Positions 36,286 to 43,416 of a DNA stretch of 64,000 nt are shown here, piece by piece. Below the pieces are notes generated by a model. It was not told the DNA's origin. It was given only the letters and a program-made list of their open reading frames with translations, and did not search any database. This stretch comes from Methanoculleus bourgensis MS2 (GTDB lineage: Archaea > Halobacteriota > Methanomicrobia > Methanomicrobiales > Methanoculleaceae), in the NCBI RefSeq assembly GCF_000304355.2, contig NC_018227.2, positions 248,001 through 312,000 of the forward strand, in the 5' to 3' direction. Numbering within the stretch: position 1 is the stretch's first letter; every line of letters begins with the position of its first letter. Both the position numbers and the translations under genes were made by a program.

Positions 36286-36984
36286 ATGAAAAAGACTCAG
36301 CAGAAGGGCTCGAAGAGCGACGATAAGGCCTGGATGAAATGGGCCTACGTGGGAATCGCCCTGCTTGTTGCGGTGGCCATGGTGGGTTCCTACTTTGCCC
36401 CGATGTTCAACAAAGGGCAGGCCGCCCAGGCGGGGAGTACGGCGTTGATCGGCTACACCATCCGCGATGAAGCCGGGCGCCCCCTCATAACGACCGATCA
36501 GGGTCTCCTGGAGAATGAATACAAGAAGGGGAACGCCGTCCTCCTCTCGAGGGGCATGGAGATCCCTGTCGGCGGACAGATCTCAGGTGAGAACATTGCC
36601 GTTCTCCCGGTCGTGTACCCAAGTATCACCGGGTTCTCGGGTTTTTCCCTCCTTGGCTTTGAGATCAATTCCATATCCGGGGGACTCGTCGGGATGCGGC
36701 CCGGCGAGACGAAGACCATCAGTTTCGCGTATGGGGAGAATAAACTCGAGAAGAACCTGAGCGAAGAGGACGCAGAAGGTCTTGGTCTTAACTTTACTGA
36801 GTGGAAGGTGGGCGACCTGATCCCGCTCGGGCTGACGACATCGCCTGATATCCCGGTGGGCAACGATACCGCTGAAACGCCGGCACTGCGGTTCGGCAAA
36901 GTCACCGCCAAGACCTCTGACACGATGGTCATCACCTACCGTTACGGCAGCGCCGACGTCACGCTCAACGGTATAACCGGGTGA
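36286..36984 (+). CDS. Membrane-anchored FKBP-like protein
   Basis: A 232-residue protein with a charged N-terminus and one TM segment (about residues 17-40, MKWAYVGIALLVAVAMVGSY), so the rest is outside the membrane. The outer domain has the FKBP-type signature GLVGMRPGETKTISFAYGEN (about 125-144) and an inserted flap-like region with FTEWKVGDLIP. It may be a peptidyl-prolyl isomerase/chaperone for exported proteins. Catalytic residues are not all recognisable, so activity is uncertain. Confidence 0.7.
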   Translation: MKKTQQKGSKSDDKAWMKWAYVGIALLVAVAMVGSYFAPMFNKGQAAQAGSTALIGYTIRDEAGRPLITTDQGLLENEYKKGNAVLLSRGMEIPVGGQISGENIAVLPVVYPSITGFSGFSLLGFEINSISGGLVGMRPGETKTISFAYGENKLEKNLSEEDAEGLGLNFTEWKVGDLIPLGLTTSPDIPVGNDTAETPALRFGKVTAKTSDTMVITYRYGSADVTLNGITG

Positions 36985-37342
36985 TACCCGTTGAGGACCA
37001 CCGGACGGTTCGTCTGGTGTGGAGGGGCGTAACGGCGCCCTCCCGGCCGCCTCTGGTATCGCCGGATGCATACGCTCTTCGGGCGAGTTCAAGAGTGCGA
37101 ACATAGGGGGAGAAATCTCTCCCTCTCAACCCTTGCGTTTTTTTGGTTTCCCCGATGATACTGTTCCAGTCATGATAGGGGGCGGCCTTCCCCAAAGTCC
37201 GGTTTTTTCCGGGTACATCCCTCCGCGCCCCCGCTCCGCCTGCCCTAAGGCGGGGGGCGACCGGCGCCTCGGCGGGATGCCCGCATCCTTCCGATGTGCA
37301 TATTGCCGCGCACGTTGATCTTCTCCCTGCACGAGGAGACGG
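36985..37342. other. Gene-free region before the MBL-fold gene
   Basis: About 360 bases. A CTCCCTCTCAACCCTTGCGTTTTTTTGG stretch (about 37112-37145) ends in seven T and could terminate the upstream transcript. A GAGGAGACGG ribosome site (37332-37341) precedes the next gene. No other element was recognised. Confidence 0.35.
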
Positions 37343-39079
37343 ATGGAAGGAGACTGGATTGAGATCCCCGGAAGCGGCGGTGCTTCTATACTTCCCTTCA
37401 CGCGGTACCCTGATGTCTGTTGTTCGAACGCTTATCTGGTTAGGACACTCCGAGAGATCATCGTCATCGATACGGGCGCCGATGAGGCCCATATCGCATC
37501 GGTCGTCGCGGCGATATGTGCGGCGAACGGAGAACACCCCCGTGACGTCTCTGTGCTGCTTACGCATTGCCATCTCGATCATGCCTACGGTGTCATCAGG
37601 CACCGGGAGTGGATAAAATCCTCGAGGGTTGCCGTCTTCGCCCAGGAAGAGGGGGCGCTGGCGCTTGAGGCCGGCGACCCGCACCAGACGGTTGCGGAGA
37701 TGTACGGCCGGGAGATCGAGCCGGTGCCGGTGGACGTCCATCTCCTGACCCGGGAGGACCGGGCTTGCGGAGGCGAACGGACGGTGGAGGCACGCGGCCG
37801 CACCGTGCGGCTATCCACTGATCGGGTGCAGGTCGATGACGAGACGGTACTGTACCGGCAGCACGTTACCTATCAGTCGGGGACAACATGCACCGTGTAT
37901 TCTATGCCGGGCCATAGCCCCGATTCCATCTTCATCAGAATCGGGGAGCACCTCTTCATCGGGGACATCCTTTTTGCGGCCAGCCCGGGCATTGCCGGTC
38001 TGCACCGCTGGGATTGCGATCACCTCTGCGCCTCGATCCGGGCGGCCCGCCTGCTCCTTGAGTCAGGGGAGATCGCTTTCTGCTGGAATGGCCACGGCCG
38101 TGGGTTGTCAGTCTCCGATACGCTCATGGCGCTCGGATCCCTTGAGACCGAGGCGGAAAAACTCAAGGGCATCTCGGCCTTCGATCCCGATCGTCTCCGC
38201 GCCTCGGTCTCCTACGCACGGGATATGCTCATAGAAGCAGGCAAACTCTTTTCCGTCATCGGCGGCAGGCTCTATTATCTCTCGTATTACCTGGAGGAAC
38301 TTGGGGAGATCGAGGAGGCGAAAAAATACCGCGACCTTCTCCAGAACGATGCAATCGATGAATTCCTCACCAACTTCTCGACCTTTGCCGGTGAGTTCGG
38401 TGAAGGAAGAAAGATCGAGATCCAGTTTGTGCTCAAGGCCGTCCAGATCGTAGGGAAGATCGAGAGGGTGCTTGGTTCCAGCCCGAACAACCCGGTGCTC
38501 GACGCCTCCCTCGTAAGGAGGGTGAGGTATCTCCTTACTGACTGTCTCTCTACGGTCTACGGCCTCAACGAGAGGCTGAACGACCGGAATATAGACCTTG
38601 CCGGATGCCTTGAAGCTTTTGTCGCGAGATACAACGACCCCTCGTATCTTGACGATGCGATGATCGCTGCAGCCGAGGACGAATCGGCATTTCTTACGGC
38701 ACTCGCCGCACGGATCGCAAACCCCGTCATCTTCGAGGAGACCGTGGTCAGCGTGGAGGTCTGCCCCCGCCCCCTCCCGGTTATGACTGATCCCGATCGG
38801 CTCTGCGACGGCATCACTGGTCTCATTGAAGACCTCGCTGCAGCCGGGGCGAAGAATGTCGTCATCACAGTGGCCGGAACGCCGGACGGTGCGACGATCG
38901 CGATCGCATCCGACGCCCTGCATCCGGACTGGCCGTATGCCGGGATCTACGAGCGGCGTTTCGCACGATGCGGGGGCCGATGCGCCATCGAGACCCGGGG
39001 CGGCACCACCCGGATTGAGGTCTGTTTTGCATGTGAGGATGCTCTATGCACGAGCGGACCTGCGCCACGGCCGACCTGA
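37343..39079 (+). CDS. MBL-fold hydrolase-like sensor fused to a degenerate GHKL-type domain
   Basis: A 578-residue protein. Residues about 1-245 form a metallo-beta-lactamase fold with all metal motifs: THCHLDHAYG (HxHxDH), MPGHSPDS, IGDILFAA and WNGHGRG. Residues about 290-440 are helical, like a dimerisation region (YYLSYYLEELGEIEEAKKYR). The last 120 residues follow the order of a HATPase domain (DPDRLCDGITGLIEDLAAAG; KNVVITVAG; a final GGTTRIEVCF), but the N-box Asn and the DxGxG loop are missing. It converges on the STAS/SpoIIE/RsbW operon with a shared terminator, so a role in that switch is plausible. Confidence 0.8.
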   Translation: MEGDWIEIPGSGGASILPFTRYPDVCCSNAYLVRTLREIIVIDTGADEAHIASVVAAICAANGEHPRDVSVLLTHCHLDHAYGVIRHREWIKSSRVAVFAQEEGALALEAGDPHQTVAEMYGREIEPVPVDVHLLTREDRACGGERTVEARGRTVRLSTDRVQVDDETVLYRQHVTYQSGTTCTVYSMPGHSPDSIFIRIGEHLFIGDILFAASPGIAGLHRWDCDHLCASIRAARLLLESGEIAFCWNGHGRGLSVSDTLMALGSLETEAEKLKGISAFDPDRLRASVSYARDMLIEAGKLFSVIGGRLYYLSYYLEELGEIEEAKKYRDLLQNDAIDEFLTNFSTFAGEFGEGRKIEIQFVLKAVQIVGKIERVLGSSPNNPVLDASLVRRVRYLLTDCLSTVYGLNERLNDRNIDLAGCLEAFVARYNDPSYLDDAMIAAAEDESAFLTALAARIANPVIFEETVVSVEVCPRPLPVMTDPDRLCDGITGLIEDLAAAGAKNVVITVAGTPDGATIAIASDALHPDWPYAGIYERRFARCGGRCAIETRGGTTRIEVCFACEDALCTSGPAPRPT

Positions 39080-39117
39080 AGAACCGGTCGGGAATTCCCC
39101 GCGTGAGGGGGTGAAGA

Positions 39118-39137
39118 ACCCTTTTTTTAAAAAGGGT
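39118..39137. terminator. Bidirectional terminator hairpin
   Basis: ACCCTTTTTTTAAAAAGGGT is an inverted repeat that gives a T-tract on either strand. It lies between the convergent stops at 39079 and 39152. Confidence 0.65.
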
Positions 39138-39151
39138 CCGCTTGAAAAGTA

Positions 39152-40417
39152 TTATCTCCTTTTGATCGCGGAGATATAGGCGATCCCGACTTTTGCACGG
39201 TAGATCTTCGTCGTATTGAGCAGATGACGCATATCGACGAACTCCCCGTCCGCAAAGCAACGCTCGATCCCCTTGATCAGGTCCGCTTCGGGGTTCCAGG
39301 GTGCGTTTCTGAAAACGGCACCGTGGTTGTGGAGGTAAAGGCCGTTCGCATCCCCTCCCTCCGGTTGAGGGGCGAGAATGGCGTCAAGCGCAGATTGGTC
39401 GTATCCTGAGAGATCAGCAGAGCGATCGATGCCGATGCCGAAGGCGACGATGCTGTAGCCGCTGTAGTTCGTTGCCGTGCGGTCTTCCGGATCCGGGGTT
39501 GAGTCGCCGTTCATCGGGGCAGGCGACCGCTTTCTGCCCATGCCTTTGAAATCCGCGACAACGCCCCAGATCGCCGTTGCCAGAATGCCGCGGCAATCCC
39601 TCTTCCTCTCTTTTGCCAGCGCGAAGATGGCGCGGTACAGGGCGTCAAGGGCGATCCCGTCCTCGTCGGTCGCCCCGACGTCAGCGATCTCGTTGAACGC
39701 TCCTTCAAGAGAGAGATTGAATGCCGTGTATGCCCGGACCTCACCCGCATCCCCGGCGGGGACAAAGAAATCGGGCGTATCATGACCGCCGGCCGGGAGC
39801 CAGATCATGGCGCTGCGGAGGGTCATCATCTCGCCGAGGAACGGCATCACATCCTCAACTGTGCTCCCGAGGGCGCCAAGGCCCAGCGAGTATTCGATCT
39901 CGGAGAGACGCTCTGCGCTGATATCCTCCTCGCTGATGCGGTTCCGGGCAAGAGCGGAATGGTCTCCCTGCACCCTCAGCGACGCGGGGGCCCGGGATGC
40001 AGTCTCGAACCCGAACCGTGCGCTTCCCCGTTCCGTCATAGGGTTCTTCAGGTCTGCGATCAGGGAGAGGCTGTCCTCACGCTTCCGCATCTCCCTGAAG
40101 GCTTCCTCACGGGACGGGAATGTCGGGAAGACCTTGTCGAAGCCCGCCATGGATAGCACGTTCTTCGGATACTCTCCGATATTACAGAGGGCAATCCCCC
40201 CGTTTCTCGCTTTCACCTTCTTCTGGAGCGCCAGAAGAACCCTGATGCCGGCGCTGCTCATGTAGGTCAGCCCATCCAGATCGACGACGACCGACCTGTC
40301 GTCGTCCCTCAGGTTACGCTCGATCTCAACCGCGACCTGCGATGCGGCGTAGCCGTCGAGTCGCCCATTCACTCCGAATATCAACACATCATCTTTTCTT
40401 TCCGTAACGATCATCAT
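39152..40417 (-). CDS. STAS domain fused to a large domain of unknown function
   Basis: A 421-residue cytoplasmic protein. Residues 1-105 are an anti-anti-sigma-type STAS domain with the phosphorylatable loop DGLTYMSSAGIRVLL. About 300 residues follow that I cannot assign (SLGLGALGSTVEDVMPFLGE; SAMIWLPAGG; YSIVAFGIGIDRS; KVGIAYISAIKRR). No membrane segment is seen. It is the last gene of the operon, 4 bases after the RsbW-like kinase. In partner switching the STAS protein is released when dephosphorylated, so the attached domain is a good candidate for the system's output. That is inference. Confidence 0.8.
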   Translation of the reverse strand: MMIVTERKDDVLIFGVNGRLDGYAASQVAVEIERNLRDDDRSVVVDLDGLTYMSSAGIRVLLALQKKVKARNGGIALCNIGEYPKNVLSMAGFDKVFPTFPSREEAFREMRKREDSLSLIADLKNPMTERGSARFGFETASRAPASLRVQGDHSALARNRISEEDISAERLSEIEYSLGLGALGSTVEDVMPFLGEMMTLRSAMIWLPAGGHDTPDFFVPAGDAGEVRAYTAFNLSLEGAFNEIADVGATDEDGIALDALYRAIFALAKERKRDCRGILATAIWGVVADFKGMGRKRSPAPMNGDSTPDPEDRTATNYSGYSIVAFGIGIDRSADLSGYDQSALDAILAPQPEGGDANGLYLHNHGAVFRNAPWNPEADLIKGIERCFADGEFVDMRHLLNTTKIYRAKVGIAYISAIKRR

Positions 40418-40421
40418 CTAT

Positions 40422-40847
40422 CTACCTCCCATCGCTCGTCTTGATACGTTTTCCAAGGATCAGGATGTTTCGTCCCTCAGTACGTTCGTATCGGATTTCA
40501 TCAGTCATTTTTCGGATAAAGTGGATACCTAGACCCCCTATGGGTCGTTCATCGGCGTCTCCTCCGAGATCGGGTTCGGGAACCTCCGTGGGATCGAAGG
40601 GCGGCGCCTCGTCCTCAATCCGTATCCGGACCATATCCCCATCACGCTGGCAGGAGAGCCGGATCAGGCCTTCCAAAGAGGTATACCCGTGCAGCATGAT
40701 GTTTGTCACAGCCTCGTCCACCGCAAGTTCAAGTTCCCGGACGGTTTTCTCCGGCACGCCGAGACGTCCAAGGATCTCGGTCACCGAGGAGAGCGCACCC
40801 GGCAGGGACGATATGGCGGCATCGATCGTGACCTCCTCCATCTTCAC
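40422..40847 (-). CDS. RsbW-like anti-sigma-type serine kinase (HATPase)
   Basis: A 141-residue GHKL ATPase of the RsbW/SpoIIAB class. The N-box ELAVDEAVTNIMLHGY, the G1 region IEDEAPPFDP and the G2 region GGLGIHFIRKMTDEI are intact, so ATP binding and kinase activity on a STAS serine are likely. It lacks the histidine-kinase dimerisation domain. The start overlaps the SpoIIE stop by 4 bases. In bacteria such kinases hold a sigma factor; archaea have none, so the sequestered partner must differ. Confidence 0.93.
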   Translation of the reverse strand: MKMEEVTIDAAISSLPGALSSVTEILGRLGVPEKTVRELELAVDEAVTNIMLHGYTSLEGLIRLSCQRDGDMVRIRIEDEAPPFDPTEVPEPDLGGDADERPIGGLGIHFIRKMTDEIRYERTEGRNILILGKRIKTSDGR

Positions 40848-42205
40848 ACCCCTTTGAGCACCATCAGGGTGATGTCGTCGAACTGGGGCTCGCCTCCCGC
40901 ATGCTCATCGATCACATCCCTGATCTCGCGGATAATCTCCCGCGACGAGTGTTCGCGCACACTGAGTACCGTCTCCATCAGTCTGGCCTCACTGAATTCC
41001 TCGTTGCTCCCGTTGATCGCCTCGGTCACACCGTCGGTGTAGAGGACGAGCAGGTCGCCCGGGAGCAGGGTGACCTGTTCTGCGCCGTATTCCTGTTCGC
41101 TGGCGGCGCCGAGCGCCACACCCGTCGGCATCAGGCGGCCGAAATCCGTGGCGCCTGCCCTGAGGAGGAGGGGCGGGTTGTGGCCGGCATTCGCGTAGGT
41201 GAGCGTCCGGGTCTTTTCGTCGAGCACGCCGTAGAAGAGGGTGACGAACATACCCGAATCCGACTGCTCTTCGATTATCGTGTTCGCATCGGCAAGAACG
41301 AGAGAGACCTCGGGATGCCAGGTTGCCGTCGCTCTGATGATCGTGCGGGAGAGCGCCATGTACAGCGCCGCGGAGACGCTCTTGCCCGAGACGTCTGCGA
41401 TAACAAGTCCGGTCTTGCCCTGCCCCAGGGGAATAGCGTCGTAAAAATCGCCGCCGACCTCCCGTGCCGGACAATTGACGGCGAGAAGGTCGAATCCCTT
41501 CAGTGTGGGGATGGACTTCGGGAGAAACGTCTGCTGAATATCTGCTGCAATCTGGAGCTCGGCTTTTTTGCGCTGGAGTTCTTCGTGGTAGGCGTCGCGT
41601 TCGGCCTTTGTCCGTCGCTCGGTAAGGAGGTTGGTGATCAGTTTTGCAAAAATAAGCATTCCGATGGCGTTTGCGAGGATCATCGGCAGGCCCACCTGAC
41701 TGACAAGGTTCAGGGCCGTCTCAAAGGGACGGGAGATGAGCAACACGATCCCCATGTGCAGCACCTCCATGCCTACGGCAAACCCGACCGCGGTTCCGAC
41801 GGTGACCGGGCGCCCTCTGTGGGCGTAATAGATCGCCCCGCCGAGAGCGCCGGCAAGGACCGTCGAGAGTGAGCAGGGAATGGCGGTGAACCCTCCAAGT
41901 CCCATCCTGAAGGCGCCGCCGATGAGCCCTGCGCCGATACCGACCACCGGTCCGCAGAAGACGCCTGCAACCATGGGGCCGAGGTCCCGCACATTGATCG
42001 GTGCGCCGAGCACCTCGACGCCGCTCAGGGTCCCGTATATCGATAGGATGCCGAAAAACAGGATCAGGTACACCCCGCCCCTGAACGAAAGCCGCCGTTC
42101 AAGCGCTTCGGTGAAGATCTCGGTCCTGGTGATGAAGTAGGCTGCGACGATGATGACGCAGATCATCTGCAGGAGAACGAGCAGATCCAGGATTTCAGCG
42201 TTCAT
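40844..42205 (-). CDS. SpoIIE/RsbU-type PP2C phosphatase with 5TM sensor domain
   Basis: A 453-residue membrane protein. The first 190 residues contain about six hydrophobic segments with PMVAGVFCGPVVGIGAGLIG, resembling the LytS-type 5TM receptor (5TMR_LYT). A coiled linker (ERDAYHEELQRKKAELQIA) leads to the PP2C domain: EVGGDFYDAIP, VIADVSGKSVSAALYMA, LYTDGVTEAING and FDDITLMVL. The metal-binding Asp residues are all present. It should dephosphorylate one or both STAS proteins in response to a membrane or ligand signal. It overlaps both neighbours by 4 bases. Confidence 0.94.
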   Translation of the reverse strand: MNAEILDLLVLLQMICVIIVAAYFITRTEIFTEALERRLSFRGGVYLILFFGILSIYGTLSGVEVLGAPINVRDLGPMVAGVFCGPVVGIGAGLIGGAFRMGLGGFTAIPCSLSTVLAGALGGAIYYAHRGRPVTVGTAVGFAVGMEVLHMGIVLLISRPFETALNLVSQVGLPMILANAIGMLIFAKLITNLLTERRTKAERDAYHEELQRKKAELQIAADIQQTFLPKSIPTLKGFDLLAVNCPAREVGGDFYDAIPLGQGKTGLVIADVSGKSVSAALYMALSRTIIRATATWHPEVSLVLADANTIIEEQSDSGMFVTLFYGVLDEKTRTLTYANAGHNPPLLLRAGATDFGRLMPTGVALGAASEQEYGAEQVTLLPGDLLVLYTDGVTEAINGSNEEFSEARLMETVLSVREHSSREIIREIRDVIDEHAGGEPQFDDITLMVLKGV

Positions 42206-42570
42206 CCGGTCAGTCTCTTTCTCTCAGTAGCCTCCTCGACACTTTCATAGACCGAAAATATCCTCAGGAATCCGGATATTTCGAAGACTTCCCGTACGAA
42301 GGGCGTCAGGGCGGCTATCGAGAGATCCCCACCCGATCTCTTGAGGTTCTTCTTTGCCGCAAGGAGCACACGAAGGCCGGAACTGCTGATATACTCAAGT
42401 CCTCCCATCTCGACGATGATCGCGCGCTCGCCGCCGTCGATGAGTCGGGAAAGCTCAGTGTCCAGGAGGCCGGCCGAAGAGGCATCAATCCTCCCTGTTA
42501 CTGATATAACAGCACCTGATTCGCCCGTATGCGCAGATATGCCACAGGCATTCGCCATCAATATTTGCAT
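42202..42570 (-). CDS. STAS domain protein (anti-anti-sigma-type antagonist)
   Basis: A 122-residue single STAS domain with the phosphorylation loop GGLEYISSSGLRVLL and the RIDASSAGLLDTEL element. It is the first gene of the operon; a minus-strand CTACTTATGG about 20-30 nt upstream may be the TATA element. ATG 42558 is an alternative start. The downstream SpoIIE gene overlaps by 4 bases. In the expected cycle, RsbW phosphorylates the loop serine and SpoIIE removes the phosphate. Confidence 0.94.
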   Translation of the reverse strand: MQILMANACGISAHTGESGAVISVTGRIDASSAGLLDTELSRLIDGGERAIIVEMGGLEYISSSGLRVLLAAKKNLKRSGGDLSIAALTPFVREVFEISGFLRIFSVYESVEEATERKRLTG

Positions 42571-43149
42571 GTCATTAAGACCATAAGTAGATTGTCTTTC
42601 TGCGCTTGAAGCGATGGGGCTTCCTTCTGAAAAAACGGCATTTCAGGGCGCCGGCATCTCCGGTGCTCGCCGGATCGGGCCGGGGGTCCTGCTCCCCGTG
42701 ACGCCGGCTTCATGCTCCTGCACCAGTGCTCGTTGTCATCTTCAATGTAGAGATCTCCCGTCTCTCTTCGCGACCTTCGCGTACTTCTGCGTGAGACGTT
42801 GGTACTCTCTAGTACCCCTCACGCGAAGCCGCGAAGACCGCGAAGGGGCGTTGCAGGGGATTATACCGAACTTCGCGCACTCCCGCGTGGCTTTCCGCGT
42901 GAGACCGACGTTCTGCACCAGGACCCGCAAGATATGGTGAAATGGCCCACTAATCGTTCCCGGAGGGTTCACCCGCAGGGCACCGATCCCGAACGTGAGC
43001 GCGGTGAGCCTGCCGGCGGGGACGGCAACAGGACCTTTAAATATCAGGGGATGAAGAGGGTATTTCTAGCGGGACGTCAGGATCGGCGAGTACAATGGAG
43101 GACGCGCATCCTCCCCTGGTTGAATCCGTGGTCTCGGCGCTGTGATACC
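42571..43149. repeat. Gene-free repeat region with R3 block and element end F
   Basis: About 580 bases. The block at 42725-42775 (GTTGTCATCTTCAATGTAGA; GATCTCCCGTCTCTCTTCGC) is family R3, also at 29.45 kb in inverse orientation. TTCGCG / TCACGCGAAG motifs follow. At 42931-42952 GATATGGTGAAATGGCCCAC then TA matches the right end of the TIR elements, but no left end is visible, so it is a solo or decayed end. CTTTAAATATC at about 43034 is a possible TATA box for the thioredoxin gene. Confidence 0.5.
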
Positions 43150-43416
43150 ATGACGGTGAAGGTGATAAGTTTCTTCCAGGAGGGCTGCATGGGGTGCGAG
43201 GAGCAGGCCCCGGTCCTCCAGGAAGTCGAGAAGGACCTCGGGATCGAGATCGAGGTGATCGATGCCGTGAAGAACCCGCAGTATATCAAGGAGTATAAAC
43301 TCCGGGTGACGCCGACAACCCTCGTTATCGAGGGTGATGAGGTCAGGGAGCGGATGGAGGGCTTCGTCCACCGTGAAGACCTCGAGGCTGCTATCCGGCG
43401 TCACCTGCCCGGATAA
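43150..43416 (+). CDS. Thioredoxin-family protein (CMGC active site)
   Basis: An 88-residue minimal thioredoxin fold. The redox motif is CMGC in SFFQEGCMGCEEQAPVL, and VTPTTLVI holds the cis-proline. It is the short archaeal glutaredoxin-like thioredoxin length. Cytoplasmic, without a signal peptide. The CMGC pair differs from the usual CGPC and fits small archaeal variants whose electron donor is often unknown. It follows a repeat region and has no clear ribosome binding site. Confidence 0.9.
   Translation: MTVKVISFFQEGCMGCEEQAPVLQEVEKDLGIEIEVIDAVKNPQYIKEYKLRVTPTTLVIEGDEVRERMEGFVHREDLEAAIRRHLPG

What the first reader, a model, noticed from the sequence alone, without database searches (positions are those of the whole stretch)
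37343..42570. Complete Rsb/Spo-like partner-switching module in an archaeon
Four tightly overlapping minus-strand genes encode a STAS antagonist, a 5TM-SpoIIE phosphatase, an RsbW-type kinase and a STAS fusion, and a convergent MBL-fold protein lies beside them. All catalytic motifs of the phosphatase and kinase are intact. In bacteria such modules release a sigma factor; archaea have none. The output is therefore something else, perhaps the ~300-residue domain attached to the second STAS or an archaeal transcription factor. This is the best candidate in the window for an undescribed regulatory system.
Basis: partly seen in the sequence, partly recalled or inferred. Interest (0 to 1): 0.8.

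Follow-up and report, generated by a model that had tools for sequence, protein, structure and literature searches.

The report
Archaeal phospho-switch with pyruvate-type sensor
A methanogen has acquired, as one 6-kb block, a bacterial-type protein-phosphorylation switch whose membrane part matches a known pyruvate receptor and whose likely outputs are an enzyme-like domain and a zinc-hydrolase protein rather than a sigma factor, which gives concrete tests for a puzzle open since 2009.

Summary
STAS (42202-42570), 5TM-SpoIIE phosphatase (40844-42205), RsbW-type kinase (40422-40847) and STAS-X fusion (39152-40417) form a tight minus-strand operon with intact motifs; a convergent MBL protein (37343-39079) abuts it. 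Archaeal SpoIIAA/AB/E-like trios were reported in Methanomicrobiales in 2009, target unknown, so the trio is not new. New here: (1) The five genes occupy a 6,164-bp insertion (36985-43148); eight other Methanoculleus have the empty site. MBL therefore travels with the operon. (2) The SpoIIE membrane domain carries all four residues that bind pyruvate in E. coli BtsS. (3) The ~300-aa X domain folds like acetolactate decarboxylase (Foldseek E 1.8e-7) and keeps its GEM and HxH motifs but not the GGH histidine. X is conserved in nearly half of Methanomicrobiales genomes and in Bacillota, Verrucomicrobiota and others, often with the same switch genes; some archaeal copies add TCAD9. (4) MBL ends in a degenerate histidine-kinase ATPase domain and is repeatedly linked to a single-STAS gene. 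Best reading: a pyruvate/2-oxoacid-type signal drives partner switching whose output is STAS-X and/or MBL, not a sigma factor. Phosphorylation, ligand and output are inferred.

The parts
36985..43148 (.). 6,164-bp horizontally acquired block holding MBL plus the four-gene operon, between ORF36286 and a thioredoxin-like gene
   Evidence: blastn: flanking homology ends at 36984 (one genome 36982) and resumes at 43149-43170 in eight other Methanoculleus genomes, where the two flanks lie ~44-66 bp apart; the same block is present in G084
37343..39079 (+). MBL-fold protein (578 aa): intact HxHxDH zinc site; helical region; C-terminal degenerate histidine-kinase-type ATPase domain
   Evidence: Pfam Lactamase_B 5.5e-8; metal ligands invariant in 13 aligned sequences; AF2 model and Foldseek to GloB-type MBLs; hhalign of the C-terminal part against own-genome histidine kinases prob 92.7, E 4.2e-7, shuffles far below
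39104..39150 (.). inverted repeat ACCCTTTTTTTAAAAAGGGT between the convergent genes, possible shared terminator
   Evidence: sequence; RNA fold -17.6 kcal/mol, z -1.4, not significant against shuffles
39152..40417 (-). STAS-X fusion (421 aa): STAS 3-106; X domain ~114-421 with acetolactate-decarboxylase fold
   Evidence: Pfam STAS 2.9e-21, X no Pfam hit; AF2 pLDDT 88.5, pTM 0.87; Foldseek to ALDC structures E down to 1.8e-7; conserved E196, H363, H365, D395, R397, H398
40422..40847 (-). RsbW/SpoIIAB-type serine kinase (141 aa)
   Evidence: HATPase_c_2 1.4e-28; RsbW, SpoIIAB and anti-sigma models match below NCBIfam cut-offs
40844..42205 (-). membrane PP2C-type phosphatase (453 aa): LytS/BtsS-type 5TM domain 29-192 plus SpoIIE domain 262-451
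   Evidence: Pfam; R73, R100, C111 and S114 align with the BtsS pyruvate-binding R72, R99, C110 and S113
42202..42570 (-). single-domain STAS antagonist (122 aa), SpoIIAA/RsbV-like
   Evidence: Pfam STAS 2.6e-21, TIGR00377 1.3e-21; S63 at the phosphoacceptor position

Best explanation
This is a membrane-controlled partner switch without a sigma factor. Inferred cycle: RsbW binds and phosphorylates the two STAS domains. The 5TM-SpoIIE phosphatase, whose membrane domain has the pyruvate-contact residues of BtsS, responds to pyruvate or a similar 2-oxo/2-hydroxy acid and dephosphorylates the free STAS. Free STAS then captures RsbW, which releases STAS-X; alternatively, STAS docks on the kinase-like tail of MBL. 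The output is therefore protein activity: the ALDC-fold X domain of STAS-X, and/or the zinc hydrolase MBL, rather than a released sigma factor. Shown here: gene set, motifs, predicted fold of X, pseudo-kinase tail of MBL, co-inheritance of all five genes, phyletic co-occurrence. Inferred: phosphorylation, direction of switching, ligand, catalytic activity of X and MBL.
For: Coupled operon with all motifs. One strong kinase and one SpoIIE phosphatase in the genome and three STAS domains, two of them here, so partners are nearly closed. RsbW and SpoIIE co-occur in 118 genomes (of 119 with RsbW and 120 with SpoIIE); RsbW is present in 94 of 96 MBL genomes and in 85 of 89 STAS-X genomes (relatedness not corrected). 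Five genes inserted as one block. MBL is adjacent to a single-STAS gene in several genera. STAS-X occurs with 5TM-SpoIIE, RsbW and STAS again in Peptococcaceae (L219), Dethiobacter (L213, SpoIIE-RsbW fusion) and Syntrophothermus (L201), and with Cache-HAMP-SpoIIE, STAS and RsbW in Opitutales (L212). BtsS residues conserved: R/R 16 of 16, C 15 of 16, S in 7 of 16 including the window. ALDC fold; profile score above 60 of 60 column shuffles in two alignments. MBL tail HATPase-like.
Against: No binding or phosphorylation data. BtsS-site residues are common in LytS-type domains generally (R72 and R99 highly conserved, C110 71%, S113 79% in the paper's alignment), and S113 is Ala in 8 of the 16 sequences aligned here, so the ligand may differ. 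X lacks the GGH histidine of true ALDC and has no Pfam hit, so it may be a ligand-binding sensor and not an output enzyme. 34 of 119 genomes with RsbW lack a detectable STAS-X, so STAS-X cannot be the only output of archaeal RsbW. In other Methanoculleus STAS-X lies away from the kinase operon, and MBL is 14-15 kb off.
Confidence: 0.5

Rival explanations
1. X is a sensor, not an output: the ALDC-fold domain binds a metabolite and tunes the attached STAS, as the sensor domains of RsbR or YtvA do, and RsbW controls an unlinked archaeal transcription factor or other target.
For: Sensor-STAS fusions are a known design (established knowledge). X has a conserved pocket-like residue set but lacks the full ALDC zinc triad. 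34 of 119 RsbW genomes have no detectable STAS-X, so another target must exist there.
Against: No transcription factor was seen to recur in the neighbourhoods read. Input already enters through the 5TM domain. RsbW is present in 85 of 89 STAS-X genomes.
Confidence: 0.25
2. The main output is the MBL protein: unphosphorylated STAS leaves RsbW and binds the degenerate ATPase tail of MBL, switching its hydrolase on or off; STAS-X is an accessory.
For: MBL is the more constant companion of RsbW (94 of 119 against 85 of 119), is adjacent to or overlaps STAS in several genera (L050, L080, L265, L268) and travelled inside the inserted block. Its tail is HATPase-like, the fold that STAS domains bind in RsbW.
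Against: In the window MBL is convergent, not co-transcribed. The tail has lost ATP-binding motifs, and no STAS-binding surface was tested.
Confidence: 0.3
3. The module is a decaying bacterial import without present function.
For: It was horizontally acquired and is absent from some Methanoculleus.
Against: All motifs are intact; the Methanomicrobiales STAS-X form one clade spread over the order; MBL metal ligands and X residues are conserved.
Confidence: 0.05

Closest known systems
SpoIIAA/SpoIIAB/SpoIIE-like proteins of Methanomicrobiales (Anderson et al. 2009, PMC2686161; M. marisnigri genome PMC3035220)
   Same: Same trio in the same order; target stated to be unknown
   Different: The passages read do not mention STAS-X, MBL, the pyruvate-receptor domain or a mobile block. 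G034, which I take to be M. marisnigri JR1 by size and single contig, has the trio at ~42-58% identity, MBL elsewhere, and no STAS-X
SpoIIAA/AB/E and RsbV/W/U of Bacillus
   Same: STAS, GHKL kinase and PP2C phosphatase with conserved serine and catalytic motifs; STAS model matches 1tid/1th8
   Different: No sigma factor in archaea; phosphatase has a LytS-type membrane domain; second STAS carries an ALDC-fold domain; MBL-pseudokinase companion
LytS/BtsS pyruvate receptor (E. coli BtsS, PMC10653868)
   Same: 5TM-5TMR_LYT domain with the four pyruvate-binding residues
   Different: Coupled to a SpoIIE phosphatase instead of a histidine kinase; some relatives have Ala for Ser113
Alpha-acetolactate decarboxylase (PF03306; PDB 4bt2, 6inb, 6j92)
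   Same: Fold over ~285 columns (TMt 0.59-0.70); GLG...GEM...L.G...DG segment; HxH
   Different: 8-13% identity; no Pfam hit; lacks GGH histidine; fused to STAS
SypA/SypE non-canonical partner switching of Vibrio (review PMC8256260)
   Same: Partner-switch parts with a STAS protein as output whose target is unknown
   Different: Different architecture and output; no ALDC-fold or MBL component in the passage read
TCAD9 ternary-system proteins (PF19974)
   Same: Some archaeal STAS-X proteins (Methanoregula, Methanolinea, Methanophagales) continue into TCAD9
   Different: The window protein has no TCAD9; no vWA-MoxR partner was sought here

Membership tests
Partner-switching module (SpoIIAA/AB/E, RsbV/W/U type) | STAS antagonist with phosphoacceptor serine | tested here: met
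   STAS S63 and STAS-X S55 at the Ser58 position; equivalence to Ser58 read from the motif, Bacillus numbering from memory
Partner-switching module (SpoIIAA/AB/E, RsbV/W/U type) | GHKL serine kinase with N, G1 and G2 boxes | tested here: met
   HATPase_c_2 1.4e-28, motifs intact
Partner-switching module (SpoIIAA/AB/E, RsbV/W/U type) | PP2C phosphatase with metal-binding aspartates | tested here: met
   SpoIIE 3.6e-51; GGDF, ADVSGK, TDG, FDD
Partner-switching module (SpoIIAA/AB/E, RsbV/W/U type) | Kinase alternates between STAS and a target | not testable with these tools
   Needs binding assays
Partner-switching module (SpoIIAA/AB/E, RsbV/W/U type) | Target is a sigma factor | not tested
   No sigma search was run; archaea have no bona fide sigma factors (PMC2686161)
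LytS/BtsS pyruvate receptors | 5TM-5TMR_LYT domain | tested here: met
   Pfam 3.9e-45
LytS/BtsS pyruvate receptors | R72, R99, C110, S113 of BtsS | tested here: met
   R73, R100, C111, S114 in the window
LytS/BtsS pyruvate receptors | Binds pyruvate | not testable with these tools
   Needs DRaCALA or similar
Acetolactate decarboxylase (PF03306) | Fold | tested here: met
   Foldseek of the AF2 model to many ALDC chains, E 1.8e-7 to 7e-5
Acetolactate decarboxylase (PF03306) | Sequence family hit | tested here: not met
   No PF03306 hit in 31 members; hhalign only E 0.0075-0.015
Acetolactate decarboxylase (PF03306) | HxH plus GGH histidines | tested here: not met
   HxH present (H363, H365), GGH absent; 3D equivalence not checked
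Histidine kinase (MBL tail) | ATP-binding N-box Asn and DxGxG | tested here: not met
   HATPase-like by profile, motifs absent

The most novel reading that the evidence does not exclude
A mobile, sigma-free partner-switching system shared by methanogens, Bacillota and Verrucomicrobiota that senses pyruvate-like acids at the membrane and directly controls a metabolic-type domain (ALDC fold) tethered to STAS, so that partner switching regulates enzyme activity or a metabolite pool instead of transcription.
Probability: 0.25. Interest if true: 0.85.

Novelty: new variant of a known kind. Interest (0 to 1): 0.6.

Why it matters
Since 2009 it has been unclear what anti-sigma-type proteins do in archaea that have no sigma factors. 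This work names an input candidate (pyruvate-like acids) and two output candidates (the ALDC-fold domain on STAS and the MBL-pseudokinase), shows that nature moves the five genes as one unit, and finds the STAS-X domain in bacteria, several of which carry the same switch genes beside it. Several of those bacteria (Pelotomaculum, Syntrophothermus) belong to syntrophic groups that live with methanogens (general knowledge), so the question can be tested in either host.

Tried and rejected
Sequence search of X against the PDB gave no usable hit. Pfam on 31 X members and 23 MBL tails gave nothing consistent. The first alignment was too diverse for the search for related loci; a narrower one worked. 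hhalign of X against ALDC is weak taken alone (probability 3-5%) and counts only together with the fold match and the shuffle control. An ECF-like sigma gene (recognised by eye) lies beside STAS-X in Pelotomaculum (L220) and one 5.6 kb away in Formimonas (L211), but none was seen near the more complete bacterial modules L219, L213, L201 and L212 (gene starts read by eye), so a sigma link was not pursued. The terminator-like repeat between STAS-X and MBL is not significant against shuffles. No paper pairing ALDC with STAS domains is held. An automatic motif survey of all 5TM domains matched only ten sequences and was dropped in favour of the alignment.
Full report
OBSERVATION. The window lies in a single-contig genome of 2,789,774 bp. 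The four minus-strand genes and the convergent MBL gene are present as described, overlap or abut by 4 bp, and carry the expected domains with intact motifs. The genome has one SpoIIE domain, one strong RsbW-type kinase and three STAS domains, two of them here.

PRIOR ART. Anderson et al. 2009 (PMC2686161) described an anti-anti-sigma, anti-sigma and serine phosphatase trio in M. marisnigri and M. labreanum, with the same kind of proteins in M. hungatei, called the kinase and phosphatase part of the Methanomicrobiales signature and said that the target cannot be determined; the M. marisnigri genome paper repeats the puzzle. The existence of the module is therefore known.

THE BLOCK. In eight other Methanoculleus genomes the genes that flank the module (ORF36286 on one side, thioredoxin-like and CPxCG zinc-finger genes on the other) are neighbours. 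Homology to the window stops at 36984 (36982 in one) and resumes at 43149-43170, with about 44-66 bp between the two points in those genomes. So 36985-43148, 6,164 bp, is an insertion that carries MBL and the operon and little else; G084 shares it. The module proteins are about 69-86% identical to those of the Methanofollis genomes G003 and G009 and about 37-58% to the corresponding proteins of other Methanoculleus. The tree of STAS-X pairs the window with Methanofollis (SH-aLRT 100) and not with other Methanoculleus. This is a transfer or replacement within the order and delimits the functional unit.

INPUT. The phosphatase membrane domain is Pfam 5TM-5TMR_LYT (3.9e-45), the sensor of LytS-type kinases. 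In E. coli BtsS, Arg72, Arg99, Cys110 and Ser113 bind pyruvate (PMC10653868). Aligned with BtsS taken from the K-12 record, the window has R73, R100, C111 and S114; across 16 sequences (BtsS included) the arginines are invariant, the cysteine is kept in 15 and the serine position is Ser in 7, Ala in 8 and Gly in 1. A pyruvate-like ligand is the natural prediction, weakened by the general conservation of these residues in LytS domains. Other archaeal copies swap this sensor for HAMP- or Cache-HAMP-type sensors (L076, L260), so the cytoplasmic switch is constant while inputs vary.

THE X DOMAIN. It has no Pfam match but occurs in 89 of 199 genomes of the order, in a few other archaeal lineages and in Bacillota, Verrucomicrobiota, Lentisphaerota and Chloroflexota records at 35-40% identity. 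AlphaFold2 on 56 sequences gives pLDDT 88.5 and pTM 0.87. Foldseek finds two folds among the 50 best matches: STAS at the N-terminus and alpha-acetolactate decarboxylase for X, with many ALDC chains at E 1.8e-7 to 7e-5. Profile comparison with 21 archaeal ALDCs is weak in itself but aligns GLG...GEM...L.G...DG in register, and its score exceeds all 60 column shuffles for two alignments. E196, H363, H365, D395, R397 and H398 are almost invariant in the main family, bacteria included, and largely lost in TCAD9-fused Methanoregulaceae copies and in the HAMP-SpoIIE-linked subfamily. ALDC has HxH and GGH; X keeps HxH only. X is thus ALDC-like in fold, not a member of PF03306. The window genome itself has no true ALDC.

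MBL. Its zinc ligands are invariant in 13 aligned sequences. Its C-terminal part matches histidine-kinase ATPase domains from the same genome (prob 92.7, E 4.2e-7; shuffles at most 17.4 against 43.8) but lacks ATP-binding motifs. Across genera MBL is next to or overlaps a single-STAS gene (L050, L051, L080, L260, L261, L265, L268, L272). Of 96 genomes with it, 94 have RsbW. It is a plausible second partner of STAS.

CO-OCCURRENCE. Counts over 199 genomes are: RsbW with SpoIIE 118, RsbW with MBL 94, RsbW with STAS-X 85. The Fisher values given there ignore shared ancestry, so I rely on the block insertion and on repeated re-arrangement of the same genes more than on the counts.

MECHANISM. The parts fit a partner switch: phosphatase activity restores STAS, STAS takes RsbW, STAS-X is freed, and STAS may also engage MBL. 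Every step of this cycle is inference from family knowledge; the gene set, predicted folds, residues and co-inheritance are shown. I put 0.5 on the overall reading, with the two main alternatives (X as sensor with an unlinked target; MBL as main output) at 0.25 and 0.3; these overlap in part.

VERDICT. A new variant of a known kind. The archaeal trio is old news; the five-gene mobile unit, the pyruvate-receptor-type input, the ALDC-fold domain on STAS, the MBL-pseudokinase companion and the inter-domain distribution were not found described in the papers I could search.

Noticed in passing
L043, L044, L045, L046, L047, L049, L188, L199: STAS-X proteins of 785-861 aa continue into TCAD9 (PF19974), a kinase-like domain of ternary conflict systems, in Methanoregulaceae and Methanophagales-type archaea (L043, L045, L049, L188, L199 scanned).
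   Followed up: partly
L075-L079, L082: A second STAS-X subfamily (~440 aa, HxH lost) sits directly beside a ~640-aa membrane SpoIIE phosphatase; the one scanned (L076) has HAMP-SpoIIE.
   Followed up: partly
L253, L254, L255, L256: In Methanocalculus a genuine acetolactate decarboxylase gene lies divergently next to the STAS-RsbW or RsbW gene.
   Followed up: no
L264:7256-9664, L271:4360-6774: In family f6 genus g20 RsbW is the C-terminus of an ~800-aa protein; the copy scanned (L271) has a Cthe_2159 carbohydrate-binding-like region.
   Followed up: no
L263: Genus g28 carries an island with 5TM-SpoIIE, STAS, RsbW, an MFS-like transporter, a LuxE-like acyl-protein synthetase and a HATPase_c_2-acetyltransferase fusion; similar-looking genes lie near STAS-X in Formimonas (L211).
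   Followed up: no
window 42817-42903: Short dispersed repeat, also found at other places in several Methanoculleus loci, inside the inserted block upstream of the STAS gene; possible trace of the insertion.
   Followed up: partly
L220:8462-9088: A gene that looks by eye like an ECF-type sigma factor lies immediately upstream of STAS-X in Pelotomaculum propionicicum.
   Followed up: no
window 39152-40417, residue 210 of STAS-X: The window protein has Gly where the other 55 sequences of the alignment have Asp in the conserved DGN motif.
   Followed up: no
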